Assembly: GCA_017307375.1 (NCBI GenBank)
Contig: JAFKFH010000004.1
Span: forward strand, 1 to 64,000
Direction: 5' to 3'
DNA: 64,000 bases
Origin: Alphaproteobacteria bacterium
GTDB taxonomy: Bacteria > Pseudomonadota > Alphaproteobacteria > Ferrovibrionales > Ferrovibrionaceae
Below the pieces are notes generated by a model, which was given only the letters and a program-made list of their open reading frames with translations, searched no databases and had not been told where the DNA came from. The position numbers and the translations under genes are program-made. Shown here in pieces: positions 19,428 through 63,418 of this stretch (the stretch's first letter is position 1; each line of letters starts with the position of its first letter).

Positions 19428-20489
19428 TTAGCCGTTTCCAGAAGCCGCGTTAGACTTTTTTCGCCGTTTGGCCTCGTGGCGTTCCAGCTTGTCGATCGCG
19501 TTTTGCCCCATGGCGAACGTGCGCGGGATGTAGGTTTCCAGGATCTTGGTCGTTTCCTCGATGGTGTGTCCGCTGATCGCGGCGATCTCGATCGGGGTGG
19601 CGCCGGCCTCGGCCATGTTGACCATGGCTGTGCGGCGCAGGTCGCGCGGCTGCAGGTGGCCGACGCCGGCGGCGGTGGCGATCTGGTGGAACCGGGCGCT
19701 GAAGGAGGCATAGGGGATCGGCCGGCCCCGATTCGCCACGATGCGCCGGCCCTCGGTCTGGGCCGGGCGAATCGCCTCGAGATGGCGGCGCAGATTGCGA
19801 TGCAGGGGCGGTTCTACCAGTTTCCCGGTTTTTTGTTGGCGCAACCGGATGCGGTCGCCCAGATGCTGCGACCAGGTCAGCTTCAGGACGTCGGCCGGCC
19901 GCTGGGCGATGTAGCGCAGCAGCGTGAAGGCCGTGACCATGTCCTGGCCGTGCGGATGCGTCGCGGCGGCCGACAGCCAGGCCTCGATATCCTCGGGCGA
20001 CCACAATTCCTGCCGGCGCGGCGGCGCGCGCAGCTTCAGCCGGGCGGCGTGGTTCTCCCGGACCAACTCGTGATACATGGCCACGTTGAACAGGTTCCGC
20101 AGCACCGCGGCGGCCTTGCGCCGCTCGCCCCGGCCCTCGATCGCCGAGATGTAGTCGACCACGCGCCGGCGCGTCAGCAGCTTGAACGGGATGGCCAGGC
20201 CCAGCCGGCCGATATCGGCCAGCCACTTCCGGTAATAGTGGGCGGTGCCGGGGGCGAGGTCGCGGAAGTCGTCCGATGCCTGATAGGTCTCGATCACCCA
20301 GCCGATCGAACCGGGTACCGCCAGCGCGCCGGCCGATCGGTCGGCATCGGCATTGAGGCGCAGCGCCATGGCGGCGCGGTCGGCCTCATCGTCCGGCAGG
20401 CGGACCAGCGGGTGGCCGCGGCGCTGCCAGTACCAGCGATCGCCGGCCTTGTCCCGGCGCCTGGTCACATATTTCAGCCGCAGATCCAC
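19428..20489 (-). CDS. int: Tyrosine-type site-specific integrase
   Basis: 353 residues. An N-terminal SAM-like core-binding domain (VIETYQASDDFRDLAPGTAH) precedes the catalytic domain. The first catalytic Arg is in YIAQRPADVLKLTW, the beta-hairpin Lys in RQQKTGKLVEPPL, the second box is RDLRRTAMVNMAEAG, then SGHTIEETTKILETYI with the last His and the nucleophilic Tyr. The first residue of the H-x-x-R box is Arg rather than His, a known variation. The protein cuts and rejoins DNA at attP/attB. It is the last gene of the leftward early operon and lies next to the presumed attL, as usual for temperate phages. Confidence 0.93.
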   Translation of the reverse strand: MDLRLKYVTRRRDKAGDRWYWQRRGHPLVRLPDDEADRAAMALRLNADADRSAGALAVPGSIGWVIETYQASDDFRDLAPGTAHYYRKWLADIGRLGLAIPFKLLTRRRVVDYISAIEGRGERRKAAAVLRNLFNVAMYHELVRENHAARLKLRAPPRRQELWSPEDIEAWLSAAATHPHGQDMVTAFTLLRYIAQRPADVLKLTWSQHLGDRIRLRQQKTGKLVEPPLHRNLRRHLEAIRPAQTEGRRIVANRGRPIPYASFSARFHQIATAAGVGHLQPRDLRRTAMVNMAEAGATPIEIAAISGHTIEETTKILETYIPRTFAMGQNAIDKLERHEAKRRKKSNAASGNG

Positions 20490-23507: not shown

Positions 23508-25723
23508 GCTATGGCCCTCATGTCCGGCATCAGGCCCAATGCCTTCAGCGCGGCTGCCGCGTTCAATTCGCTCAACTTCTCCGCCATGTCGGCCGGCACG
23601 CTGTTGCCGATCAGCCGCATCGCCTCAGTCTTGTTCAACGGGCGGCTGATCATGATCGGCATGCCGTCGCCGTCGAACAGCCGGTTGCCCTTGCGGTCCC
23701 GCTTCTGGAGCGTGATGGCGTCCGGCATCGTCAGGTTGTGAGCCTTGGCGGCTTCCCAGTGCTTCAGCATCCGCATCCCGAGGTCCGCGATGATGTAGTT
23801 GCCGACCGTAACGATCTCGCCGCCGTCCCAGCATCCGAAGCGCCGCAGGAAATCGGCGACCTGGCGGGCGCGGGCGTACTGTGCCGGCGTCAGCGGTGGC
23901 GACTGCAGTCCGGCGCTGGTTACGCTGAAGCGATCGACTGACGGCAGGGTGTTCAGCGCGTCGCCGACATCCTGGTGCTGGCCGCCTGTGCCGTAATACT
24001 CGGTCAGATGGGCAACCGTGATGGCGTGCTTTACTTCGCTGGCGACCTGGGTGCCGATCGCCTCTTCGATGTCGAGGGCGCGCGGTTCCTGACCGTCGCG
24101 CTCGCCATAGCCGACCTGGACCATGGACGCGGCGACGACACCGAGCGGAATGGCACAGCCTGGACGGGTTTCGCTGTTGCCGTTGGCGGTGACGGTCGGC
24201 AGCGCGTCGTTGACGTCGCCGCCCACCGAGTTCTCCCGGAACTTGGTCAGATGCACCGCGGCGACGTGGATATTGTCGCCGCCGCGTCCGCCTCCCGTCG
24301 CGAGTGTCCGCAGGCTTTCCTCGATCGACGTCGGCGCGCCCGTGCCTCGCTGATGCACGAGATAGGCGGCTGCCAGGCCCTGCGGTCCCATGGTGGCGAC
24401 GGTGGTGCTCAATGCCTCCTCCGCCGAGTGTCCGATCACCCCGGTATTGTTTTGCACCAGCCAGGCGCCGGCGACGGCAAGCTCGCCGCCCTTGACGTTC
24501 GCGGTCAGTGTCGGCAGGGCGCCGGCACCTTCATGTGTCCGGTTGTCCGAGCCGGCGCCGCCACGATGCGTCGTCGATACCAGTGAGGGCGCCACAAGGG
24601 CCATCTCGCCGCGATGCGCACCGGTGATTGTCGGTACCGGGAGGTCGACATCGATCGGGTTGCGCTGACCGTGATGGGTCAGCGCGACCAGAAACGGTTT
24701 TTCGGCGTCGATGACATAGCGCTTAGTGCCGAAGGCGATTCGGCGCTGGGTGGCGATGACCAGGTCCTTCTTGCGGTCGAATATGCTCGGGATCGGGATT
24801 GACCAGTCGAGGATTGTGGCGGCCGCGACGTGCGGAAGAAGGCGCCCTGAGAGGACTGTTTCGCGGTGTCGACGGTCGTGGGTCTGCTGCGGCCAGACCG
24901 GCGCTGCCCCGCTGAAATGGCCGATCCCGAACAGTCGGGTCCTGGTGGTCGGAATGCCGTAGTTCGCGCAGCAGAGGTCGCGATCCTCGTAGGTGGCGCC
25001 CAGTCCGCGCAGGTGCTTCAACCAGGCGCGCCACCGCTGCCCGGCCCGCTTCGGGTCGCGGACCAGGGCCTGTTCGCGTACCGGTACGACCTCGCCCTTC
25101 GCTGCCACGGTGCCGTCGAGCTTGACGACGCGGCCGGTCGCCTTGCATCGCTTCGCGATCAAAGGCCCCCAGCCACGGATCTCCTTGACGTTTTCGAGGT
25201 ATACGACTTCAGGCCCCAAGCCTCGCTTTCGCAGGACGCCGACCCAGCGGCACATCTGCCACGGCAGAGACCGTCGGCGCGGTGATCGCGGCGCGTCGCC
25301 CTTGGCCACGCTGAAATCGACGCAATCCGGGCTGCCCCATAGCTGGAAAACCCTCTGGCCGCCGACGGCAAGGTAGGGATCGACTTCGAGAATGTCGGCC
25401 TGGATATGCCGGGTATGCGGATTCAGGGCGCGGTGCGCCGCGATTGCGATCTCGTCGTGGTTGACTGCGACCGCTACGGGAAATCCCGCCTTTTCCATGC
25501 CCTGGCAGGCGCCACCCATGCCGGCGAACAGCACCACATTGATCCCGACGCCGAGGGGCCATTGCCTACGTCGCCGTTCCCGCGCCGACGCGGCGATGCG
25601 CGGCGCCTGGCGTGCGGCGTTCCGGCGCGGCTCGCGGAAACTTTGCCGGCGGCGGCGCTGCGGCTTGGGCGGGGCCGGGTCAATCTGCTCGGGCAGGTCG
25701 GTGAACAGTCCGGTGTCGCTCAT
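23504..25723 (-). CDS. DNA (cytosine-5) methyltransferase with long repeat-containing insert
   Basis: 739 residues, far longer than the usual 330-450. Motif I is LFAGMGGACQGMEKAGF near residue 65; motif IV contains Cys134 in GSPDCVDFS, where PC is read as PDC; motif VI is LENVKEI near 177. Motif VIII-like PTTRTRLFGIGHF is near 260, and motif X IGNSVPADMAEKL is at the C-terminus. Residues about 343-602 hold seven degenerate repeats of 33-43 residues in the target-recognition region. An N-terminal basic extension (RRRRQSFREPRRNAARQ) precedes the core. The enzyme methylates cytosine in phage or host DNA, perhaps to escape restriction. It overlaps ssb and the MazG gene by four bases each. Confidence 0.88.
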   Translation of the reverse strand: MSDTGLFTDLPEQIDPAPPKPQRRRRQSFREPRRNAARQAPRIAASARERRRRQWPLGVGINVVLFAGMGGACQGMEKAGFPVAVAVNHDEIAIAAHRALNPHTRHIQADILEVDPYLAVGGQRVFQLWGSPDCVDFSVAKGDAPRSPRRRSLPWQMCRWVGVLRKRGLGPEVVYLENVKEIRGWGPLIAKRCKATGRVVKLDGTVAAKGEVVPVREQALVRDPKRAGQRWRAWLKHLRGLGATYEDRDLCCANYGIPTTRTRLFGIGHFSGAAPVWPQQTHDRRHRETVLSGRLLPHVAAATILDWSIPIPSIFDRKKDLVIATQRRIAFGTKRYVIDAEKPFLVALTHHGQRNPIDVDLPVPTITGAHRGEMALVAPSLVSTTHRGGAGSDNRTHEGAGALPTLTANVKGGELAVAGAWLVQNNTGVIGHSAEEALSTTVATMGPQGLAAAYLVHQRGTGAPTSIEESLRTLATGGGRGGDNIHVAAVHLTKFRENSVGGDVNDALPTVTANGNSETRPGCAIPLGVVAASMVQVGYGERDGQEPRALDIEEAIGTQVASEVKHAITVAHLTEYYGTGGQHQDVGDALNTLPSVDRFSVTSAGLQSPPLTPAQYARARQVADFLRRFGCWDGGEIVTVGNYIIADLGMRMLKHWEAAKAHNLTMPDAITLQKRDRKGNRLFDGDGMPIMISRPLNKTEAMRLIGNSVPADMAEKLSELNAAAALKALGLMPDMRAIA

Positions 25724-38323: not shown

Positions 38324-39022
38324 ATGACGGCGATGACGATTGCCCGGCCCCTGCCGGGCGATGACGGGGAACACGTGCCTGACGCCACCTTGACTACGCC
38401 ATCGCGCGGCCCGGCCGACAGCCGCCCGGCGACACGCGGGCCGGCCCGGCCGGCCAACCGCGCGCTCGGCACCTGGTCGGATCAGCTCGTCGCCCGGTTG
38501 CTCGAGCTGGCCGGCGCCGGCCAGTCGAACGGCGCGATCGCCCAGGCGCTCGGCCCGGGCTTCACCAAGAACATGGTGGCCGGCAAGCTGCACCGCCTGG
38601 GCAACCCGGTGCCCAGGTCACCGCGCCCGGCGGCCGAGCCGCCGCAGCAGCAGCCGAAGCCGACGCCGACGTCGAAACCGCGGGCCGCCCGCGCGCCCAG
38701 GCCCGGGCGCGAAGGCCGGGCCGAGGCCGACCGCCGGCCGCTGGCGGTGCTGATCGATCTCGACGCCCGCCGGCCGCGCCCGAAACCGCGCCCGGATCCG
38801 GCCGCGACGCCGCGCCGGCGGGTCAGCGATTTCCGCACCTGCCAATGGATCGCCGGGGCGCCAAGCTGGGACGATGCCTGCAAATGCGGCGCCCCGACCG
38901 TCGAGGGATCGAACTACTGCGCGCCGCACGAGGCGCGGGCCTGGCAGGCCCGCGACCCGGATCTCGACCGGATGATGAAAAGCGGGGCGCGGCGGATCGG
39001 GGACCGGGAGGCGGGGCGGTGA
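38324..39022 (+). CDS. gcrA: GcrA-family cell-cycle regulator
   Basis: 232 residues. The N-terminal core (TWSDQLVARLLELAGAGQSN, GAIAQALGPGFTKNMVAGKL, HRLGNPV) matches the GcrA DNA-binding domain. The C-terminal zinc-like part is CQWIAGAPSWDDACKCGAPT then VEGSNYCAPHEARAW. A Pro/Arg-rich linker and a 40-residue N-terminal extension make it longer than typical GcrA (about 170). In Caulobacter and relatives GcrA activates promoters bearing CcrM-methylated GANTC sites. A phage copy next to methyltransferase genes may re-time host or phage promoters. The start has GGGAGATTGAG upstream. Confidence 0.85.
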   Translation: MTAMTIARPLPGDDGEHVPDATLTTPSRGPADSRPATRGPARPANRALGTWSDQLVARLLELAGAGQSNGAIAQALGPGFTKNMVAGKLHRLGNPVPRSPRPAAEPPQQQPKPTPTSKPRAARAPRPGREGRAEADRRPLAVLIDLDARRPRPKPRPDPAATPRRRVSDFRTCQWIAGAPSWDDACKCGAPTVEGSNYCAPHEARAWQARDPDLDRMMKSGARRIGDREAGR

Positions 39023-39884: not shown

Positions 39885-41099
39885 GTGACCGGCGCCGTGC
39901 AAGTCATCCACGGCGACAGCCGGGTCGAGCTGACCCGGCTGGCCGACGCCTCGGTCGATGCCGTCGTCACCGACACGCCCTATGCGCTGGAATCGATCGT
40001 CCGGCGCTTCGGCGCCGCCAATGCCGCGCCGGCCAAGGGCGGCGTCTACGGGCGCTCGGCTGCCGGCTTCATGGGCCAGAAATGGGATACCGGGGCCGAG
40101 GCGTTCGACCCGGCTTTCTGGCGCGAGGTGTTCAGGGTGATGAAGCCGGGCGCCTCGCTGTTCGCCTTCGGCGGCACCCGCACCTATCACCGCCTGGCCA
40201 CCGCGATCGAGGATGCGGGTTTCGAGATCCGCGACCAGTTCCAGTGGCTCTATGGCCAGGGCTACCCGAAGTCGCACTCGCCGCTCGAAAGCATGCTGGC
40301 TCTGCCGCGCACGCTCGACCGGGCGGGCTGGCGGCGCCTGCATCGCCTGGCGCGCCAGATGTCGGGCTCGGCGGTCAAGCCGTCGGTCGAACCGATCGTG
40401 CTGGCGCGCCGCCCGATGATCGGGAACACGCTGGAAAACCTGCTGGCGTTCGGTGTCGGGGCGCTGAACATCGACGGCTGCCGCGTACCGACCGACGACG
40501 ACCTGCGGGCCGGTGCCGGCGGTCTGCTGAGCCACGTTCGTGATGGCAAGCCCTGGCCGGGCGCTCGCCAGCGCGAGGGGGTGCCAAGTGCGGGCCGGCG
40601 CTACCATGCGTCGAGCCGCGAGGGATTCACGATGTTGCCCGGCGCGCGGGAAGGCCATTCGCTCGGCCGCTGGCCGGCAAACGTGCTGCATGACGGCTCG
40701 CCCGAGGTGCTGGCGCTGTTCCCCGAGGCGCCGGGGGGCGCGTCAGGCGGTGACGGGCGAGGAACGGTCACCGATCACCGCTGGCATCTTCGGCGACATG
40801 GGCAACGTGCGGCGGCCGGCGCTGCCGCGCGATGCCGGCGGTTCGGCCGCGCGGTTTTTCTATTGCGCCAAGGCCGACCCGTCGGACCGCATGGGGTCGC
40901 GGCACCCGACCGTCAAGCCGCTCGGGCCGAGGGCATGCGATCGATCCTGATCGAACGCGAAACCGCCTATGTCGCCGATATCCGCCGGCGGCTGGCCTGG
41001 GTCGAGGGCGAGGCACCACACAGCCGCCGCCTGAAGGCGCAGCGCCGCGCCCATGTGCCGGTACCGCCGACGCCGCTGTTCGGCGAGGCCGTGTCGTGA
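39885..41099 (+). pseudogene. Site-specific DNA methyltransferase, disrupted by poly-G frameshift and deletion
   Basis: The GTG start at 39885 gives MTGAVQVIHGDSRVELTRLA with the catalytic motif TDTPYA at residues 29-34 (DPPY-like, amino-methyltransferase). The sequence continues convincingly to PEVLALFPEAP. At a run of six G (40733-40738) the family-like sequence moves to the +1 frame: RQAVTGEERSPITAGIFGDM ... RFFYCAKADPSDRMGSRHPT. After VKPL the expected DPFxGSG SAM-binding segment is missing and the frame returns to EGMRSILIERETAYVADIRR. Two lesions, a +1 G and a deletion, explain this. The product is expected to be inactive. Confidence 0.78.
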
Positions 41100-42020
41100 C
41101 GGCGGCCGCGATCGCCGTGCCGCTGTCGCTGGTGCCGCGTCCCGTCCTGCGCTGGTTCGGCGGGAAGTGGAAGCTGGCGCCGTGGATCATCGCCCATTTT
41201 CCGGCGCATCGCGTCTATGTCGAGCCGTTCGGCGGCGGGGCGTCGGTGCTGATGCGCAAGCGGCCGGCCGAGCATGAGGTCTATAACGATCTCGACGACG
41301 ATGTCGTGAACCTGTTCCGGGTGCTGCGCGATCCGGCCTCGGCCGCATCGCTGGTGCAGCAGCTGGAACTGACGCCCTATGCCCGGGCGGAATTCGAACT
41401 GGCCTATCAGGCCAGCGATGATCCGCTCGAGCGCGCCCGGCGGCTGCTGATCCGTAGTTACATGGGATTCGGCGCGAACGCGCATAATTCGGAACTGACC
41501 GGCTCGCTGTCGACCGGCTTCCGCTCGTCGACGTCGGCGACGCGGGGCGGCTCGACCATGGTCGCCGACTGGCGGAACTATCCCGGCCGGGTGCCGCATT
41601 TCGTGCAGCGGCTCAAGTCGGTCTATATCGAGAATCGCGACGCCCTCGAGCTGATGCAGCGCCACGACGGGCCGGACACGCTCCACTATGTCGACCCGCC
41701 CTATCTGTGGGAGACGCGCAGCCGCGGCAACCGCTACGACCTGGTGCGGCGGATGTATCGCCACGAACTGGACCGGGGGGGGGCATGCCGACCTGCTGAC
41801 CGCGCTGCGCGGCCTCGCGGGCATGGTGGTGCTGTCGGGCTATCCCGACCCGATGTACGACGACATGCTGCCCGACTGGCGCCGCGTGACCTGCGTCGCC
41901 CTGGCCGACGGCGCGCGCGAGCGAACCGAGGTGCTGTGGATCTCGCCGCGCTGCGCTGCAGCCCTGGATGCGCGGGACCGGGCTGTCGTGCCGTCGCTGT
42001 TCGATCGGGTGGCGCCGTGA
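41096..42020 (+). pseudogene. Dam-type (D12 class) adenine methyltransferase, frameshifted in a run of nine G
   Basis: GTG start at 41096 overlapping the previous gene by four bases. Motif I-like FGGKWKLAPWII and YVEPFGGGASVLM (residues 21-53) and DPPY in LHYVDPPYLW (200-203) are intact. At 41775-41783 there are nine G. One G fewer would join the upstream part to GHADLLTALRGLAGMVVLSG and on to the TGA at 42018, giving 307 residues. With nine G the reading frame runs into a non-homologous extension to 42718. The class makes N6-methyladenine at sites such as GATC. The lesion could be a phase-variable OFF state or an assembly error. Confidence 0.8.
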
Positions 42021-42022
42021 CG

Positions 42023-42415
42023 TCACCCCGCCAGCAGCCGTTCGGCCGCCTCGGCCAGAAAGCCGGAGCGATTGCGGGAAACCGCGTCGATCCGGGCCAG
42101 CAACTGGGCGTCGAGGGTGACGTTGACGCGCACCGCGCGGCCCTCGGGCGGCAGCAGCGGCACCAGCACCGCGACGGCGCCTTCCCACACGATCCAATCG
42201 TCGCCGGCCGCCCGGATCTCGGCGAGGTCGCGCGGGGCCGGCACCGGGGCGCCATCCTCGCGCAGTCCTTCGACGTGCAGCGCCAGGGCCTCGGCCCCGC
42301 CGCGCACCGCCTCATCGACCGTTGCGCCCGCCGAGACGCAACCGGGAAAGTCGGGGAACGAAATGCCGTACTCGCTATCGGCATCCTTGTGGATCAGGGC
42401 GACATAGTAGGTCAT
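42023..42415 (-). CDS. hicB: HicB-family antitoxin
   Basis: 130 residues. The N-terminal HicB domain reads ALIHKDADSEYGISFPDFPG, CVSAGATVDEAVRGGAEALA, LHVEGLREDG. The C-terminal RVNVTLDAQLLARIDAVSRN with SGFLAEAAERLL is a ribbon-helix-helix DNA-binding domain. It neutralises HicA and represses the operon. It follows hicA on the minus strand with a 12-base gap. It overlaps none of the methyltransferase gene; the two stops are two bases apart. Confidence 0.9.
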   Translation of the reverse strand: MTYYVALIHKDADSEYGISFPDFPGCVSAGATVDEAVRGGAEALALHVEGLREDGAPVPAPRDLAEIRAAGDDWIVWEGAVAVLVPLLPPEGRAVRVNVTLDAQLLARIDAVSRNRSGFLAEAAERLLAG

Positions 42416-42427
42416 GGCGATCTCTCC

Positions 42428-42619
42428 TTATTTCAGCCCGGCTTGCCGCAGGATCGAGGCGATCGTGCCGGCCGGCAGCGTCTTGTTCGGGTGCGGGATG
42501 GTCACGCGGCCCGGCTTGGTCGGATGTTTGAACTGGACGTGGCTGCCCTTGGTGGCGACTTCGTACCAGCCGTCGGCCTGCACCATCTTGATCAGTTCGC
42601 CGCTCGACTTGTTCCGCAT
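42428..42619 (-). CDS. hicA: HicA-family toxin (mRNA interferase)
   Basis: 63 residues from the ATG at 42619. The sequence SGELIKMVQADGWYEVATKG, SHVQFKHPTKPGRVTIPHPN, KTLPAGTIASILRQAGL is the HicA dsRBD-like fold; the catalytic His is in GSHVQFKHP. It cleaves mRNA in the absence of HicB. The gene is first in the hicAB operon, transcribed opposite to the replication genes. Its -35 TTGACG (42672-42667) and -10 TATGTT (42649-42644) are separated by 17 bases on the minus strand. Confidence 0.9.
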   Translation of the reverse strand: MRNKSSGELIKMVQADGWYEVATKGSHVQFKHPTKPGRVTIPHPNKTLPAGTIASILRQAGLK

Positions 42620-42714: not shown

Positions 42715-43827
42715 ATGAGCTTCGATCCGGCTTTCCTCGATGATCTGCGCGCCCGCACCCGGGTGGTCGATGTGGTCGGCCGCCGGGTGACGCTGCGGCG
42801 CGCCGGCCGGGAATATCAGGGCCTCTGCCCGTTCCATGCCGAAAAGGGGCCGTCGTTCACGGTCCGCGAGGACAAGGGCTTCTTTCATTGCTTCGGCTGC
42901 GGCGCCCATGGCGACGCCATCGCCTTCCTGATGCGGCTCGACGGGCTGTCCTTCGTCGACGCGGTCGAGCAACTGGCCGGCGAGGCCGGGCTGATGCCGC
43001 TGCGCGATGGCCGGCGCGAGGCCCTGGCCCCGGTGGTCAAGCGGCGGTCCCCCGAGGAACAGGCCGAATCGGATGCCTGGGCGCGGCGCCATGCGGCCGG
43101 GCTGTGGCGCGCCGCCCGGCCGGTGGCCGGCAGCATCGGTGCCGCCTATCTGCCGTCGCGCGGCATCACCATCCCGGCGCCGCCGACGCTGCGGTTCGTG
43201 CCCCGCCTCAAGCACCGGCACCGGCCCGAGGATGGGCCGGAACAGGTCTCGCACTGGCCGGCGCTGATCGCCGCGGTCTGGGCGCCCGATCGCTCGCTGA
43301 TGACCTGCCATCGCCATTACCTCGCCCTCGACGGCGCGGCCAAGGCACCGGTACCGGCGGCGAAGAAGGCGCTGGGCGCCTATGCCGGCGGTGCCGTCCG
43401 CCTGACCCGGCCAGCGCGGCGCCTCGCCGTCGGCGAGGGGGTCGAGACCTGCTTGTCCGTCGCGCAATCGTTCTGGGACGACGCTGCCGGCGGGCCGGTC
43501 TGCGACGGCGAGCGGCTGGCCGTCTGGTCGGCCGTCTCGCTCGCCAATCTGGCCGGCGGCGGCGACGATCGCTCGACCCCGCACCCGACGCTGCCGGGCA
43601 AGCGCGTGCCCAGCCCGTACCCCGACCCCGAGCGGCCGGGCCTGATCCTGCCCGACTGGGTCGAGGAAGTGATCCTGCTGGGCGATGCCGACGGCGACAT
43701 GCCGACGGCCGAGGCCCTGATTGAGCGCGCCGCCCGCCGCCACCACGCCGCCGGCCGCCGCGTCCGCATCGCCTGGCCTGCGCCGGGCACAGATTTCAAC
43801 GACATGCTTCAGGGGGCCGCCGAGTGA
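42715..43827 (+). CDS. Phage DNA primase, CHC2 zinc finger plus Toprim
   Basis: 370 residues from the ATG at 42715. The zinc finger is YQGLCPFHAEKGPSFTV with FFHCFGCGAHGDAIAFLM (Cys-His-Cys-Cys), as in DnaG. The middle domain includes YLPSRGITIPAPPTLRFVPR. A Toprim-type centre follows with LAVGEGVETCLSVAQ (E of EGxE) and VILLGDADGDMPTAEALIER (DxD). It should synthesise RNA primers or help the coupled helicase. The stop overlaps the helicase GTG start by four bases. The hicAB operators lie directly upstream. Confidence 0.9.
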   Translation: MSFDPAFLDDLRARTRVVDVVGRRVTLRRAGREYQGLCPFHAEKGPSFTVREDKGFFHCFGCGAHGDAIAFLMRLDGLSFVDAVEQLAGEAGLMPLRDGRREALAPVVKRRSPEEQAESDAWARRHAAGLWRAARPVAGSIGAAYLPSRGITIPAPPTLRFVPRLKHRHRPEDGPEQVSHWPALIAAVWAPDRSLMTCHRHYLALDGAAKAPVPAAKKALGAYAGGAVRLTRPARRLAVGEGVETCLSVAQSFWDDAAGGPVCDGERLAVWSAVSLANLAGGGDDRSTPHPTLPGKRVPSPYPDPERPGLILPDWVEEVILLGDADGDMPTAEALIERAARRHHAAGRRVRIAWPAPGTDFNDMLQGAAE

Positions 43828-56258: not shown

Positions 56259-57050
56259 ATGATTCCCACGTCAAGGCGCGACCTGGTCGCGTTCACGCCG
56301 TCGCGCTTCGATCTTGCCGCCGCCTCGGCGGCCTTGGCCGAGGCGGAAGCGGCGCTGGCCGCGGCCGGCGACGACGAGCGGGCCAAGGCCGAGCGGCGCG
56401 CCGCCTCGGCCCGCCGTCGTCTCGCCCAGGTCGAGACCAATATTGCCGCCTGCCCGGGCGGCCAGCCGCCGGTCTACTGGATCGAGCCGCCCGGGGTCTA
56501 CGAGCGCACGCGGGCGCTGGGTCTGATCGCCCAGCGCGGCGCGGCGCATTACCCCGGCGATCGCGACCTGGTCACCGCGATGCGCCGGGTGGTCGAGGAT
56601 GCGATCGATCCGCGCATCGACGCCTCGGCCGTGCTCGAATTTCTGGACCGCTGGGATGGCATGCTGGCGGCCGGCGAGGTGATCGCCGGGGCCGACAAGC
56701 ATCAGGTCGACGACCTCATGCTGTATTTCCAGTCGCACCCGCTGGTCGCCTCCCGCCTCGAGGCCCGGGCGGTCTGGGTGGCGGTGGTGCCGATCGTCGC
56801 GACCCAGATGTTCCTGGCCCGCGCCGATGGCGTCGCCTTCGATGTGCGGCGTGGTCCCGGCCAGTTGCTCGACGAACGCACGCTGGGGCTGATCCCCGAC
56901 GAGGACAGGAACGAAATCGGCTGGCAGGCCTGGGCGCTGGGCACGCTGTCGGAGGCCGACCGAAAAAAGTCCGCATCGCTGTCGTCGCCACCCGCGAGCC
57001 TGCCGCCTTCGACAGCGATGACGACGGCGGCGGCGGATGGGACGTCCTAG
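56259..57050 (+). CDS. Tail assembly chaperone, zero-frame product (gpG-like)
   Basis: 263 residues. It is the gpG equivalent: VLEFLDRWDGMLAAGEVIAG, DKHQVDDLMLYFQSHPLVAS, VPIVATQMFLARADGVAFDV. The N-terminal 65 residues are an Ala/Glu/Arg coiled coil (ALAEAEAALAAAGDDERAKA). The zero frame ends 81 bases past a slippery A AAA AAG at 56963-56969, in a low-information Ser/Pro tail (SPPASLPPSTAMTTAAADGT), which suggests that the -1 frame carries the conserved sequence. It acts on the tape measure during tail assembly. Confidence 0.75.
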   Translation: MIPTSRRDLVAFTPSRFDLAAASAALAEAEAALAAAGDDERAKAERRAASARRRLAQVETNIAACPGGQPPVYWIEPPGVYERTRALGLIAQRGAAHYPGDRDLVTAMRRVVEDAIDPRIDASAVLEFLDRWDGMLAAGEVIAGADKHQVDDLMLYFQSHPLVASRLEARAVWVAVVPIVATQMFLARADGVAFDVRRGPGQLLDERTLGLIPDEDRNEIGWQAWALGTLSEADRKKSASLSSPPASLPPSTAMTTAAADGTS

Positions 57051-57271: not shown

Positions 57272-57945
57272 TCCATCTGTCGGGCGGCATGGTGGGTCAG
57301 GGCTTCGCCGCCGCGCTGCGGGCCGACCTCGAGCGCGCCAAGCGCGCCCACACCGCCGGTATCGGCGATGCAGCCGCCGCGATGCGGGCCGACCTGATCG
57401 ACGATGCCCGGGGCGCCGGCCTCGGCAAGCTGGGCTATGCCTGGCGGGCCGACGTCTATCCGCGGCGGGGCGCCAGCCTTGCCGCCGCCGCCCAGATCTG
57501 GGTCAAGAACCCGCGCCATCGCGGGGCGATCGAGGCCTACACGACCGGCGCGACGATCCGCGGGCAGGGCGGTCAGTACCTGGCCATCCCGACCGAAGCG
57601 GTGCCCTACCGCGCCGGTGTCGGTCGCGGCGTGCGCCAGCGCATGACGCCGGTCGAGGTCGAGGCCGCGTTCAACCGCGATCTCGAGCTGGTGCCGGCCG
57701 GGCCGGGCCGCTTCGTGCTGGTGATGCCGGAGGCGACGCCGGCCCGCCGCGGCGGCTATCGCGAGGTGACGCGCCGCCGCCGCGCCGCCGGGCGGGCGGT
57801 CCGCCGCATCGTCATGTTCACGCTGGTGCGCCAGGTCACCATCGCGCGCCGGCTGTCGACCGACCAGATCGCGGCGGCGGGGCTGGCCCGCGTGCCGGCG
57901 ATGATCGAAGCCGCCTGGGCGGCGGAAGGGGGAAAGGATGCCTAG
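57268..57945 (+). CDS. Tail component, DUF6441-like
   Basis: 225 residues from the ATG at 57268, coupled to the -1 chaperone frame. The sequence GMVGQGFAAALRADLERAKR, LGYAWRADVYPRRGASLAAA, AQIWVKNPRHRGAIEAYTTG, ATIRGQGGQYLAIPTEAVPY and GRFVLVMPEATPARRGGYRE resembles DUF6441-type phage proteins that follow the chaperone genes. Its fold reminds of gp10/Z-like minor tail proteins. The stop overlaps the tape measure gene by eight bases. Confidence 0.65.
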   Translation: MIHLSGGMVGQGFAAALRADLERAKRAHTAGIGDAAAAMRADLIDDARGAGLGKLGYAWRADVYPRRGASLAAAAQIWVKNPRHRGAIEAYTTGATIRGQGGQYLAIPTEAVPYRAGVGRGVRQRMTPVEVEAAFNRDLELVPAGPGRFVLVMPEATPARRGGYREVTRRRRAAGRAVRRIVMFTLVRQVTIARRLSTDQIAAAGLARVPAMIEAAWAAEGGKDA

Positions 57946-60900
57946 TCTGGTCTATCGGCTGGAAAGCCAGGGTTTCGACACGCTGGAACAGCGGTTCGTC
58001 TCGGTCGGCAATGCCGGCGACCGCGTCATGTCGCGCATCACCCAGGCGGTGGCGCAGATGGCGCAATCCTGGCGGCAGGCCGATGCCCAGGCCGAACAGT
58101 CGGCGGCGAAGACGGCGAAATCGGCCGATGAGATGGCCAAGGCCTTCGAGCGCGCAGCCGCCGGCGCCGAGGCGCTGGGCGAGGTCGACCTGTCGGGCGT
58201 CGGCGATGCCGCCGAGGCCTCGGCCGATCGCGCCGCCGGCGTGTTCGAACAGGCGGTCGCCCGCGTCAAAGCCGCGTTCGCGGGCGGCGCCGAGGAAAGC
58301 GGCGCGTCGTGGGACCGGTTCGCGCAGCGCCAGGACCGTTCGGCGGTGCTGACCGTGGCCAAATGGGGCGCGGTCGCGGCTGCGGCGGCCTATGCCGCCG
58401 ATGCCGCGATCAACGGATTCGACAAGGCCAACGCACGCGTCGTCGGCATCGTCACCGGCATCGGCGAGGCCGGCGAACAGGCGGCTCGGGCGGCCGAGGA
58501 TTATGCGCGGCGGAGCGCCGGTGCGATCGGCGACGCCTATGACCAGTCGGCCGCCCAGGTGCAGCGCTGGGCCGACCAGGCCACCGCGCAGTACCAGCGG
58601 TTGAGCGACGCGGCCGAGGGCGCGGCGCGGGCCGCCGCCGACGCGGCGGTGACCAAAGGATTCGAACTGGCGGCCGAGGCGGTGCGGGCCTATGCCGGCG
58701 AGATGGTCGACCTCGGCCTGCAGTTCGACGCGCTGCGCCAGCAGACCGGCCAGTCGGTGGCGGCGATGATGCAGCAGCGCCAGGCGGCCGCCGCGCTGGG
58801 CACCGATACCGCGACGCTGGGCGCCGCGCTCACCCGGCTGGGCGACACCATCGAGGGCACCGGTGAGGATGCGGCCCGCACCCGCGCCATGCTGGCCGAT
58901 ATGGGGGTCAGCCTCGACGGGCTGACCCGCAGCCAGGCACCCGAGGCGCTGGCCCGCATCGCCGAGCGGATGCAGCAATATGGCCCGTCGGCCGAGCGCG
59001 CGACCATCGCCAACAAGCTCTTGGGCGACGGCATCGGTACCGAGCTGCTGCCGGCGCTCGACCGTGGCGGGGCGGCGATGCGGGCGGCGGCGGGCGAGGC
59101 CGAGCGCTATGGCCTGCGGCTGTCGGATGCCCAGGTGGCGGCCTATCGCCGCATGGCCGAGCGCCAGGCGCAGGCCGAGCGCGAGAATCGCGCCTATGCC
59201 GAGCGGGTCGGCATCATCTGGGGCGACCTGGCGGCGAAATTCTCCGATATCGGCGCCGCGCAGATCGGGGCGCTCGACAAGCTGTCGCATGGCTGGAACG
59301 CGGTGCTGACCGCGATGGGCGAGCGGGCGCAGGCCTGGTGGGACACGCTGCCCGAATTCCTGCGCAACCTGCTGTCGCCCGGGGCGATCACCGGGGCGAT
59401 GTCGTCGCTGACGGTGACGATGCCGCCGCTGCAGGTCTCGGTGCCCGGCCAGACGGCGCCGGGCGGCGCCTCGGCCACCGCGGTCGACTACCTGACCAAC
59501 GGCACCCAGGCGGCGGGCAGCGCCACCCGCGTGCTGGCCGAGGAGCAGCGCCGGATGTTCGAGGCGGCCAAAGCCGGGATCGCCGACATCAACAAGGGCT
59601 ATGAGGAAAAGATTCGACTGGCCGGCCTCGACGTCACCCAGCAACAGGTGATCGCCGCACGCGAGCGGGCGCGGGCCGAGGTGCTGGCCCTGTTCCCGAA
59701 CCTGACGAAGGAACAGGCTAAAGAGTTGGAACCGCTGATCAAGCAGACCGAGGCCCTGGCGGAGCGCGAGATCCGCACGGCCGAGGCGCGCAAGAAAGCC
59801 CAGGAAGCAGCCGAGAAGGCGAACAAGCTGCTGATCAGCCAGGGCGACGACCTGGTGCGGGCGACCGACGCCCAGGCCAAGGCGATCGTCAAGGCGAACG
59901 ATGGCGTCGAAAGCCAGATCCGCAAATTGGAGGCCGCGGCCGTCGCCGCGGGCGGGTTGACCACCGAACAGCGGGTGCAGCAGGCGATCATCGAAGCGCA
60001 GAACCAGCTGGTCGATGCCCAGGGGCAGAAGATCCGCGACCTGACCGAGGCGGAGAGGACCCGGATCGACGCGGCGATCCGCCTGAAGGAAACGAGCGAA
60101 GCGCAGAAAAAGGCGATCGAGGATCAGCAGCGCGCGACCGAGAAGATGACCGACGATGTGGTGCGGTATGGGGCCGATCGCTTTGCCGACCTGTTCTCGG
60201 CCAATCGCAAGGGCTGGCGCGAGATGGTGGCCGACATGGGCTCGTCGGCGATGGCCATGTTCGCCCGGCTGGCGTTCGAGGCGGCGGCGCGGCCGATCGT
60301 GCTGCCGGTGGTGACGTCGGTGGTCGGCATGATGTCGGGCGGTGCGGCCGCGGCCTCGCCGGTCGCGGGCGTCGCCTCGTCGGGCTCGTCGTCGTTCATG
60401 TCGTCGATCGTCTCGCCGACGAACTTCCTGCCGACCAACTTCTTGAACCCTTTCGGCAACAACTTCTTCGGCGTGGCCGGGGGGCTGTCGGAGATCATGA
60501 CGCCGGGGGCCGGCTGGCTCGCCTCGGCGCTGCCGTCGCTGTTCGCGGCGCCGGTGACCGGGCTGACCTCGGGCGCCGCGGCCTCGCTCGGGATCGGGGC
60601 GGCCGAGGCCGCGTCGCTGAGTGCCGGCGGCGCGCTGGCCGGCATGTCCGGCCTGCTGTCGGTCGGGTTGCCGATCGCCGCGGCGATCGCGCTGCCGATG
60701 CTGATGGGCCTGTTCGGCGACGATCAGCGCCCGGTGGGCAATGCGCAGTTCGAGGCGATCCGCAATGGCCGGCTGTTCGTCGGCAATGGCGGCGTCACCA
60801 GCCTCGACGGCGGCGATACCTCGGTGCCGATGCAGATGCGGGCCAACACGGCCGAGGCGGTCAACCGCATGGCCACGGCCTATGGCCTGACCATCAACAA

Positions 60901-63418
60901 GGATCTGTTTCAGCCGGACTACGACCCGCGTTTTGCCGGGTTCGGCAATACCAGCAACATCGACCTGTTCCGCTCGCCCGAGGATTACATCAAGGCGCTG
61001 TTCGGCGCCGACAGCGCCAAATACGGCGTCGGCGTCGAGGCCGACCGGCCGCAGGTGCGCGCAGCCCTCGACCGGCTGCGGGCCGGCAACTGGAAACCCG
61101 ACACGGTCGACGACATCAACCAGGGCCTGGCGGTCGCCTTCGACTTCGACCGCAACCGCAGCCTGGCGGCCGCCGGCGGCACCGGCACGCGCGAGGGCCA
61201 GCGGCTGAGCCAGCGTTACGCGGCCGAGGATGCCGCCAAGCAGCAGGGCGAGGCCTTCACCACCTATCTGGAAAAGGTCACGAAGGTGTTCGGCGAGGGC
61301 AGTGCACAGGCGACATCAGCCGCGACCTCGGTGCGCCAGCAGGCGCTGGCCTCGCTCGGCATCGGGCCGGAAGGCGGCGGCGCGGGGCTGACCGGGCGCG
61401 GGGCTGAGATCGTAGCGATTCAGGAACGGATCGCCGCGGCGGCCCCGGCCCTGAAGGCGGCCGGGCTGACCGATGCCGAGATCGCCGCCGCCCAGACCCA
61501 AGCCCGCGACAAGGCCCTCGACCCCTACAAGAAATCGCTGGCCGACCAGATGGCGCTGGCCAATGCCGGCGGCACCACCACCCGCGCCGGCCAGGCGGTG
61601 GCGCTGCGCATGGCGGCCGAGGCCCGGGCCCAGACCTATGCCGACAGCGCGAAAGAGATGATCGGCACGGCCGAGACGCTGTACGGCGCCGGCTCGGACC
61701 AGGCCAAGGCCGCCCAGGCGGCGGCCAAAAATCAGGTCCTGTCATCCTACGGCATCGGGCCGAAGGGCGACGGCGAGGCGCTGACCGGCATGGCCGCGGC
61801 GATCGCGGCGGTGCAGGCCGAGGCCAAGGCGGCCGAGCCGGCGCTGAAAGCGGCCGGATTGACCACCGAGGAAGTGGCCAAGGCGATGCAGCAGATCGAA
61901 TCGTCGGGCGTGTCGAAACTGAAGGACCAGTTCGTCAAGGAAATGGACAAGGGCTTGAAGCAACTGACCGACCCCGAGGGCGCGGCGCGCGACGCGATGC
62001 AGGCCCAGGTCGATGCGATCATGGCCGATGCCAAGGCGTTGAACGACCCGCAGGCGATGCAGAAGGCCAAGCAGTACACCGACCAGATCGTCGCGAATTT
62101 CGAACAGGCGGCGGCGGCGGCCCAGCAGGCGGCGCAGAACAGCCAGGTGGCGGCGACCGTGGGCGGCGCCACCAGCGTGGCGGTGGCCCGCCAGCAGGCG
62201 GCGACAGCGGCGGCGCAGAATGCCCTGGGCACCGCCAGCCAGGCGGTGGCGCAGGCGCAGTCCGACCTGTCGGCCGCGCAATCGGCGGTGCAGCAGCAGA
62301 TCGGCGCCGCCGCCCAGGCGGCGCAGGCCTGGGCGGCGACGGCCGACCGGCTGGCCTCGGCCCGCCGCGACCTTGCCCTGAGCGAGCTGTCGCCGTTGTC
62401 GGAGGCCGAGAAGCTGGCGGAGGCGCGTGCCCGCGTCGGCGTGCTGCGCGCGCAGGCGACCTCGGGTGGCACCGATGCGGCGACCCAGGCGGCGATGGAC
62501 GCGCTGCCGGATGCGATCCGGACATTCCTGCAGCTCGATCGCCTGTTCAACTCGGGCAGCGATAACGCGACCTACGGCCGGGATTTCGCCGAGATGCAGG
62601 ATCTGCTGCGCGATACCGAGACGACGGCCGGTCGCCAGGCGCGGTTGCAGCAGCAGATGGTCGACATGCTGCAGGCGCAACTGCCGGGCATCGGCACCAA
62701 CGTCAAGTCGATCGCCGACGCCACCGCGGCGCTGGCCGGCGCCCAGGCGGCCGAGGCCGCCGCCAAGGCCAATGCGTCGACGGCGGCGACGACATCGAAT
62801 GCGGCGCTGAAATCGCAGTTCGAGACGCTGGCGACCCAGGCGCTTGGCTACTACAACGATGCCGTGCCCAAGATCGGCGCGAAGCTAGCCGGTGACAATA
62901 TGGAAGCCCGCTACGGCGCCGCGCGCGACCAGATCCTCGGCGCGATCACCGACTGGCATATCATTAACGAGTTGGGCGAGAAGTACTATAAGGGCGCGGT
63001 GGGCTCGCCGGCGGCCGACAGCATGCGGGTAAAGATCATCCAGCTCGGGGGGGTGCCGACATTCGCCGATGGCGGCCTCGTCGCCGGTGGCATCCCGGGC
63101 ATGGACAGCGTGCTGGCCGGCTTGATGCCGGGCGAGCGGGTGCTGACCGTCGAACAGACCAGGATCTTCGACCGGCTGGCGGCCCGGGTGGTCAATGACA
63201 ATGTCCAGCCGGATCTGGCGCCGGTGGTCAAGGCGCTGGGCGGCCTCGGCCCGGTGTTCCGCGGTGCGCTGATCGGGACCGAAGGTCTGCTATCCCGGCT
63301 GCTGGCCGAGGTGGTCAAACTCAACGGCCAGGTGGCGCAGCAGCAGCGCGATCTGGCAGCACTTGGCCAGACGCGCGGCGATCTCTACGGCCGCGATATC
63401 GCCCGGTCGAAGCGATGA
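57938..63418 (+). CDS. Tail tape measure protein
   Basis: 1826 residues, mostly helical and Ala-rich. The N-terminal part (TLEQRFVSVGNAGDRVMSRI) and coiled coils are followed by a hydrophobic Gly/Ala/Ser region around residues 790-930 (PIVLPVVTSVVGMMSGGAAA, PIAAAIALPMLMGLFGDD). Two related segments of about 130 residues follow from about residue 1078 and 1209, each with GIGPxGxG and AxEPALKAAGLT-type sequences. The C-terminal GGLVAGGIPGMDSVLAGLMP, GERVLTVEQTRIFDRLAARV is the typical tape measure end. The protein sets tail length and enters the host membrane on infection. Confidence 0.93.
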   Translation: MPSLVYRLESQGFDTLEQRFVSVGNAGDRVMSRITQAVAQMAQSWRQADAQAEQSAAKTAKSADEMAKAFERAAAGAEALGEVDLSGVGDAAEASADRAAGVFEQAVARVKAAFAGGAEESGASWDRFAQRQDRSAVLTVAKWGAVAAAAAYAADAAINGFDKANARVVGIVTGIGEAGEQAARAAEDYARRSAGAIGDAYDQSAAQVQRWADQATAQYQRLSDAAEGAARAAADAAVTKGFELAAEAVRAYAGEMVDLGLQFDALRQQTGQSVAAMMQQRQAAAALGTDTATLGAALTRLGDTIEGTGEDAARTRAMLADMGVSLDGLTRSQAPEALARIAERMQQYGPSAERATIANKLLGDGIGTELLPALDRGGAAMRAAAGEAERYGLRLSDAQVAAYRRMAERQAQAERENRAYAERVGIIWGDLAAKFSDIGAAQIGALDKLSHGWNAVLTAMGERAQAWWDTLPEFLRNLLSPGAITGAMSSLTVTMPPLQVSVPGQTAPGGASATAVDYLTNGTQAAGSATRVLAEEQRRMFEAAKAGIADINKGYEEKIRLAGLDVTQQQVIAARERARAEVLALFPNLTKEQAKELEPLIKQTEALAEREIRTAEARKKAQEAAEKANKLLISQGDDLVRATDAQAKAIVKANDGVESQIRKLEAAAVAAGGLTTEQRVQQAIIEAQNQLVDAQGQKIRDLTEAERTRIDAAIRLKETSEAQKKAIEDQQRATEKMTDDVVRYGADRFADLFSANRKGWREMVADMGSSAMAMFARLAFEAAARPIVLPVVTSVVGMMSGGAAAASPVAGVASSGSSSFMSSIVSPTNFLPTNFLNPFGNNFFGVAGGLSEIMTPGAGWLASALPSLFAAPVTGLTSGAAASLGIGAAEAASLSAGGALAGMSGLLSVGLPIAAAIALPMLMGLFGDDQRPVGNAQFEAIRNGRLFVGNGGVTSLDGGDTSVPMQMRANTAEAVNRMATAYGLTINKDLFQPDYDPRFAGFGNTSNIDLFRSPEDYIKALFGADSAKYGVGVEADRPQVRAALDRLRAGNWKPDTVDDINQGLAVAFDFDRNRSLAAAGGTGTREGQRLSQRYAAEDAAKQQGEAFTTYLEKVTKVFGEGSAQATSAATSVRQQALASLGIGPEGGGAGLTGRGAEIVAIQERIAAAAPALKAAGLTDAEIAAAQTQARDKALDPYKKSLADQMALANAGGTTTRAGQAVALRMAAEARAQTYADSAKEMIGTAETLYGAGSDQAKAAQAAAKNQVLSSYGIGPKGDGEALTGMAAAIAAVQAEAKAAEPALKAAGLTTEEVAKAMQQIESSGVSKLKDQFVKEMDKGLKQLTDPEGAARDAMQAQVDAIMADAKALNDPQAMQKAKQYTDQIVANFEQAAAAAQQAAQNSQVAATVGGATSVAVARQQAATAAAQNALGTASQAVAQAQSDLSAAQSAVQQQIGAAAQAAQAWAATADRLASARRDLALSELSPLSEAEKLAEARARVGVLRAQATSGGTDAATQAAMDALPDAIRTFLQLDRLFNSGSDNATYGRDFAEMQDLLRDTETTAGRQARLQQQMVDMLQAQLPGIGTNVKSIADATAALAGAQAAEAAAKANASTAATTSNAALKSQFETLATQALGYYNDAVPKIGAKLAGDNMEARYGAARDQILGAITDWHIINELGEKYYKGAVGSPAADSMRVKIIQLGGVPTFADGGLVAGGIPGMDSVLAGLMPGERVLTVEQTRIFDRLAARVVNDNVQPDLAPVVKALGGLGPVFRGALIGTEGLLSRLLAEVVKLNGQVAQQQRDLAALGQTRGDLYGRDIARSKR

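What the first reader, a model, noticed from the sequence alone, without database searches (positions are those of the whole stretch)
40733..41783. Tandem methyltransferase genes each interrupted at a poly-G run
The first gene leaves its frame at six G (40733-40738), the second at nine G (41775-41783); in each case removing one G restores the family-like sequence, giving 307 aa for the second. Poly-G slippage is a known phase-variation mechanism for methyltransferases, so these could be ON/OFF switches in the prophage. Homopolymer assembly error is the main alternative.
Basis: partly seen in the sequence, partly recalled or inferred. Interest (0 to 1): 0.7.

Follow-up and report, generated by a model that had tools for sequence, protein, structure and literature searches.

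The report
Decayed prophage methyltransferase gene pair
Two neighbouring DNA-methylating genes in a prophage are both broken; the first is dead for several independent reasons and cannot be a switch, and the second is put out of frame by one extra base in a run of nine G, which is more likely ordinary decay than an ON/OFF switch, although a switch is not ruled out for that gene.

Summary
Both frame breaks exist in the given sequence. Gene 1 (PF01555 N6/N4 methyltransferase, about 39885-41099) gains a net +1 at or beside G6 (40733-40738). Gene 2 (PF02086 D12/Dam-like, 41096-42020) gains exactly +1 in the ten bases holding G9 (41775-41783). The 'two poly-G switches' reading fails for gene 1: against its homologs it also lacks about 94 nt (33 codons reduced to 5 nt) holding SAM motif I (DPFAGSGST), and its catalytic motif IV reads DTPY where 31 of 32 homologs have DPPY. 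No G-run length could switch it on. Gene 2 is intact apart from the +1, so a reversible switch is possible, but no length variant was found, none of 128 homologs has a G/C run over 3 at this site, and the in-frame codons there (RGG) are atypical. Assembly error is unlikely: 12 other runs of 8-14 G in the genome lie in one open coding frame, and a frameshift scan of 760 kb found no other break at a G/C run. Best reading: a methyltransferase module decaying in an otherwise largely intact prophage. Tentative side result: phage Dam-like genes carry G/C runs of 8 or more about 3.5 times as often as their flanks, all in frame.

The parts
39885..41099 (+). gene 1: N6/N4 DNA methyltransferase (PF01555), pseudogene; the start codon is a guess (GTG 39885 or 39897)
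   Evidence: Pfam E 3.8e-6; phage homologs 35-44% identical
39972..39983 (+). motif IV of gene 1, reads DTPY instead of DPPY
   Evidence: 31 of 32 distinct homologs have DPPY
40733..40738 (+). G6 run; net +1 frame break at or beside it
40924..40928 (+). junction of a deletion of about 94 nt that removed motif I (5 nt where homologs have 33 codons); reading returns to frame 0
41096..42020 (+). gene 2: D12 class (Dam-like) adenine methyltransferase, PF02086, frame-broken at G9
   Evidence: Pfam E 3.4e-18; PHROG 56 E 5.9e-56; phage homologs up to 65% identical
41775..41783 (+). G9 run carrying the +1 frame break of gene 2

Best explanation
The two genes are a methyltransferase module decaying in a prophage. 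Shown: gene 1 has a frame break near G6, has lost the codons for SAM-binding motif I, and has an altered catalytic motif, so as read it cannot encode a working enzyme whatever the length of the G run. Shown: gene 2 as read is out of frame by +1 at G9, so its product loses its last 78 residues and runs on through about 310 unrelated codons to a stop at 42718. Inferred: with selection on the module relaxed, gene 2 broke at its most slippage-prone spot, a G9 run, by replication slippage. Such a change can in principle revert, but nothing shows that it is used as a switch.
For: Three block frames plus motif I deletion and DTPY in gene 1; exact +1 in gene 2 by spacing against 121 homologs; gene 2 tract absent from all homologs at this site, where the longest G/C run is 3; 12 other long G runs in the genome keep one coding frame and no other G/C-run break on 760 kb, so the breaks are probably real mutations; both genes are adjacent and overlap, and integrase, primase, terminase and portal genes of the prophage look intact.
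Against: Gene 2 has only one lesion and keeps coding signal on both sides, so its loss must be recent or it may still be used; no reads or sister strains were available to show that nine G is fixed.
Confidence: 0.68

Rival explanations
1. Gene 2 alone is a phase-variable Dam-like methyltransferase: slippage in the G9 tract switches a 307-aa enzyme ON and OFF in the lysogen population, and the sequenced consensus is OFF. Gene 1 is a bystander pseudogene.
For: G9 is a slippage-prone length (tracts of 8 or more are mostly variable in N. meningitidis, PMC5084427); gene 2 is otherwise complete; phage Dam-like genes carry G/C runs of 8 or more 3.5 times as often as flanks (9 vs 27, P=0.003); a homolog in another genome has its own in-frame G9 near the N-terminus.
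Against: No length variant found; tract not conserved at the site; all nine tracts of 8 or more in 155 homologs are in frame, none OFF; enrichment threshold was chosen after seeing the first set, and the genes beyond that set gave 3 tracts against about 1 expected; in-frame residues RGG are atypical.
Confidence: 0.15
2. Homopolymer assembly or consensus error: the true sequence has one G fewer in one or both runs.
For: Both breaks are +1 at G runs, and the assembly is a draft of 41 contigs; no raw reads could be examined.
Against: 12 other runs of 8-14 G lie in one open coding frame, several with Pfam domains spanning the run; no other G/C-run frame break on 760 kb containing 114 runs of six, 17 of seven; an error at G6 would not explain the 94-nt deletion or DTPY. 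The identical IMG/VR contig is probably the same sample and is weak evidence.
Confidence: 0.12
3. Gene 2 is expressed in spite of the +1 by transcriptional or translational slippage on the G9 run.
For: Long homopolymers can slip during transcription (general knowledge); the second half keeps coding signal.
Against: No homolog has a run or a frame change there, unlike a conserved programmed site.
Confidence: 0.05

Closest known systems
Simple-repeat phase-variable methyltransferases (mod genes and phasevarions of Neisseria and Haemophilus, M.NgoAV)
   Same: A long G homopolymer inside the coding sequence of an otherwise complete adenine methyltransferase (gene 2 only)
   Different: No length variation shown, tract not conserved, orphan phage D12 enzyme, and the neighbouring gene is a pseudogene; gene 1 fails outright
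Phage orphan Dam-like D12 methyltransferases (PHROG 56; e.g. Pseudomonas phage F116, Caulobacter phage Sansa)
   Same: Gene 2 N-terminal 225 aa about 50-55% identical, with EPFGGG and DPPY motifs present
   Different: Extra base in a G9 run; those homologs have no G/C run over 3 at the site
Phage PF01555 methyltransferases (Caulobacter phage DMCA, Rhizobium phage RHph_X2_25, Rhodobacter phage RcSaxon)
   Same: 43-44% identity over the N-terminal 280 aa (DMCA, RHph_X2_25); in DMCA also downstream of a GcrA-like gene
   Different: Window copy lacks motif I, has DTPY, and is frame-broken

Membership tests
Phase-variable methyltransferase (simple-repeat contingency locus), gene 1 | Gene intact apart from the repeat, so that a change of repeat length restores it | tested here: not met
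   Motif I deleted (about 94 nt), DTPY in motif IV
Phase-variable methyltransferase (simple-repeat contingency locus), gene 1 | Repeat long enough to slip often (about 8 or more G) | tested here: not met
   Six G; C38 alone holds 114 G/C runs of six
Phase-variable methyltransferase (simple-repeat contingency locus), gene 2 | Repeat of about 8 or more G in the coding frame | tested here: met
   G9 at 41775-41783
Phase-variable methyltransferase (simple-repeat contingency locus), gene 2 | Gene otherwise intact | tested here: met
   Both halves open, EPFGGG and DPPY present, C-terminus complete
Phase-variable methyltransferase (simple-repeat contingency locus), gene 2 | Repeat length varies between cells or strains | tested here: inconclusive
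   Only one other copy found, identical and probably from the same sample
Phase-variable methyltransferase (simple-repeat contingency locus), gene 2 | Repeat kept at the site in orthologs | tested here: not met
   Longest G/C run at the site in 128 homologs is 3
Phase-variable methyltransferase (simple-repeat contingency locus), gene 2 | Methylation differs between ON and OFF cells | not testable with these tools
   Needs methylome data
PF02086 D12 adenine methyltransferase (gene 2) | Profile match with motif I and DPPY | tested here: met
   E 3.4e-18 over 187 of 253 profile positions in the first frame
PF01555 N6/N4 methyltransferase (gene 1), functional member | Motif IV (DPPY) and motif I (DPFxGSG) present in one frame | tested here: not met
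   DTPY, motif I deleted; descent from the family is clear

The most novel reading that the evidence does not exclude
Phage-borne Dam-like (D12) orphan methyltransferases repeatedly and independently acquire long poly-G/C tracts and act as contingency loci; the window's gene 2 is one caught in the OFF state.
Probability: 0.1. Interest if true: 0.6.

Novelty: new member of a known kind. Interest (0 to 1): 0.25.

Why it matters
As read it is ordinary prophage gene decay, and the evidence removes one of the two proposed switches. If the excess of long G/C tracts in phage Dam-like genes holds up in an unbiased set, it would mean that phages use for their own DNA methylation the same slippage switch that some bacteria use for phasevarions, and that could be tested in existing lysogens.

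Tried and rejected
A gapped pattern around G9 in viral contigs found only the same contig; a gapped pattern around the G10 of L231 found only its own contig. No similar DNA in plasmids. First counts of tracts in sets B and C repeated some set A contigs because fetched offsets differed; corrected. A synonymous-codon shuffle showed runs of 6 and 7 well below expectation, runs of 8 or more not significantly above it (9 vs 5.5) and runs of 9 or more above it (4 vs 0.6). Frame changes flagged at 23635 and 29868 are ordinary four-base gene overlaps. No out-of-frame copies at a tract among 155 homologs; L329 has an in-frame stop codon instead. Two PHROG calls failed on coordinates. Structure prediction was not used: it would not bear on the question.

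Full report
What was checked. The window is bases 1-64000 of contig C38 (67.5% GC) of a 7.54 Mb genome in 41 contigs; no genome of the same genus appeared among the relatives searched. G6 (40733-40738) and G9 (41775-41783) are present.

Gene 1. It matches PF01555 and methyltransferases of Caulobacter phage DMCA, Rhizobium phage RHph_X2_25 and others. tblastn with homologs gives three blocks: frame 0 to about 40730, frame +1 at 40798-40923 (ending GSAARFFYCAKADPSDRMGSRHPTVKPL), then frame 0 again from about 40929 (EGMRSILIERETAYVADIRRRL). The first change is a net +1 in a short stretch that contains G6: homolog L060 has three residues between APG and AVTG, the window ten bases. The second change is a deletion: 5 nt where homologs have 33 codons, so about 94 nt are missing, including SAM-binding motif I (DPFAGSGST). 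In addition motif IV reads DTPY (39972-39983) where 31 of 32 distinct homologs have DPPY, and the commonly conserved GWGTALKP reads SGSAVKP. Gene 1 is therefore a pseudogene whose state does not depend on the G run.

Gene 2. It matches PF02086 and PHROG 56, and relatives in phage records are up to about 55% identical, in IMG/VR up to 65%. It begins at GTG 41096, overlapping the stop of gene 1 by four bases. Between HELD and the next conserved His the window has 10 nt; homologs have three codons. So there is exactly one extra base. Both halves are otherwise open and have coding signal. In frame, the run would read Arg-Gly-Gly at a site where acidic residues are common (Arg 1 of 121 at the first position), and no homolog has a G/C run longer than 3 there. 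Gene 2 is one lesion away from a complete reading frame, but its tract is peculiar to this lineage.

Is it an assembly error? In the whole genome there are 17 runs of exactly eight G and nine runs of nine or more. Twelve of these lie inside one open coding frame, among them a G10 in a dioxygenase, a G14 in an FkbM-domain methyltransferase and a G9 in a beta-lactamase-family gene, with Pfam matches spanning the run. The window's G9 is the only long run with confident coding in different frames on its two sides that is not a gene start or end. On C38 a codon-usage frame scan found no other break at a G/C run, although this scan would miss short shifted stretches, and it missed the one in gene 1. 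The breaks are therefore probably real, but reads are needed. IMG/VR contig 3300042370_000008 is identical over 9.2 kb including both runs; it is probably the same sample, so it is weak confirmation.

Is it phase variation? For gene 1, no. For gene 2 the mechanism is possible; homopolymers of 8 or more are the ones mostly found variable in Neisseria meningitidis (PMC5084427). No length variant could be found. As a wider test 155 distinct phage Dam-like genes were collected. Runs of 8 or more: 9 in 131 kb of gene against 27 in 1.36 Mb of flank (3.5-fold, P=0.003); runs of 10 or more: 4 against 5 (8-fold, P=0.005); runs of 6 or more are not enriched. A homolog in genome G021 has a G9 near its N-terminus, one of only two in that genome. 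This is suggestive but weak: thresholds were chosen after seeing the first set of 80; the genes beyond that set gave three tracts where roughly one was expected; all nine tracts are in frame; they sit at different sites, and three of the nine fall on the glycines of motif I. It stays a lead.

Conclusion. Most likely the module is decaying: gene 1 is dead, and gene 2 was recently knocked out of frame at its most slippage-prone site, in a prophage whose integrase, primase, terminase and portal genes look intact. Gene 2 as a switch is kept at 0.15, assembly error at 0.12.

Noticed in passing
window 56963-56969: Heptamer A AAA AAG in slippery phase near the end of the reading frame 56259-57050, with coding continuing in the -1 frame to 57271, two genes upstream of a very long ORF (57938-63418) that looks like a tape measure gene: a likely programmed -1 frameshift of a tail assembly chaperone.
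   Followed up: partly
window 42023-42619, minus strand: HicB-like antitoxin (42023-42415) and HicA toxin (42428-42619) genes directly downstream of and antisense to gene 2; the out-of-frame extension of gene 2 runs through them.
   Followed up: no
window 38324-39022: GcrA-like cell cycle regulator (PF07750) upstream of the methyltransferases; Caulobacter phage DMCA has a GcrA gene upstream of its homologous methyltransferase too.
   Followed up: no
L145 (G000:C10:13052-13065): In-frame run of 14 G inside an FkbM-domain methyltransferase gene of the same genome, longer than the background decline of run lengths would predict: a better contingency-locus candidate than the finding itself.
   Followed up: partly
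L190, L231, L360, L191 (phage Dam-like genes): In-frame tracts of 10-11 G or C at different sites of homologous phage Dam-like genes.
   Followed up: partly
window 19428 to about C38:72210: Prophage extent implied by IMG/VR contig 3300042370_000008; an integrase gene (19428-20489, minus strand) lies at its left edge.
   Followed up: partly
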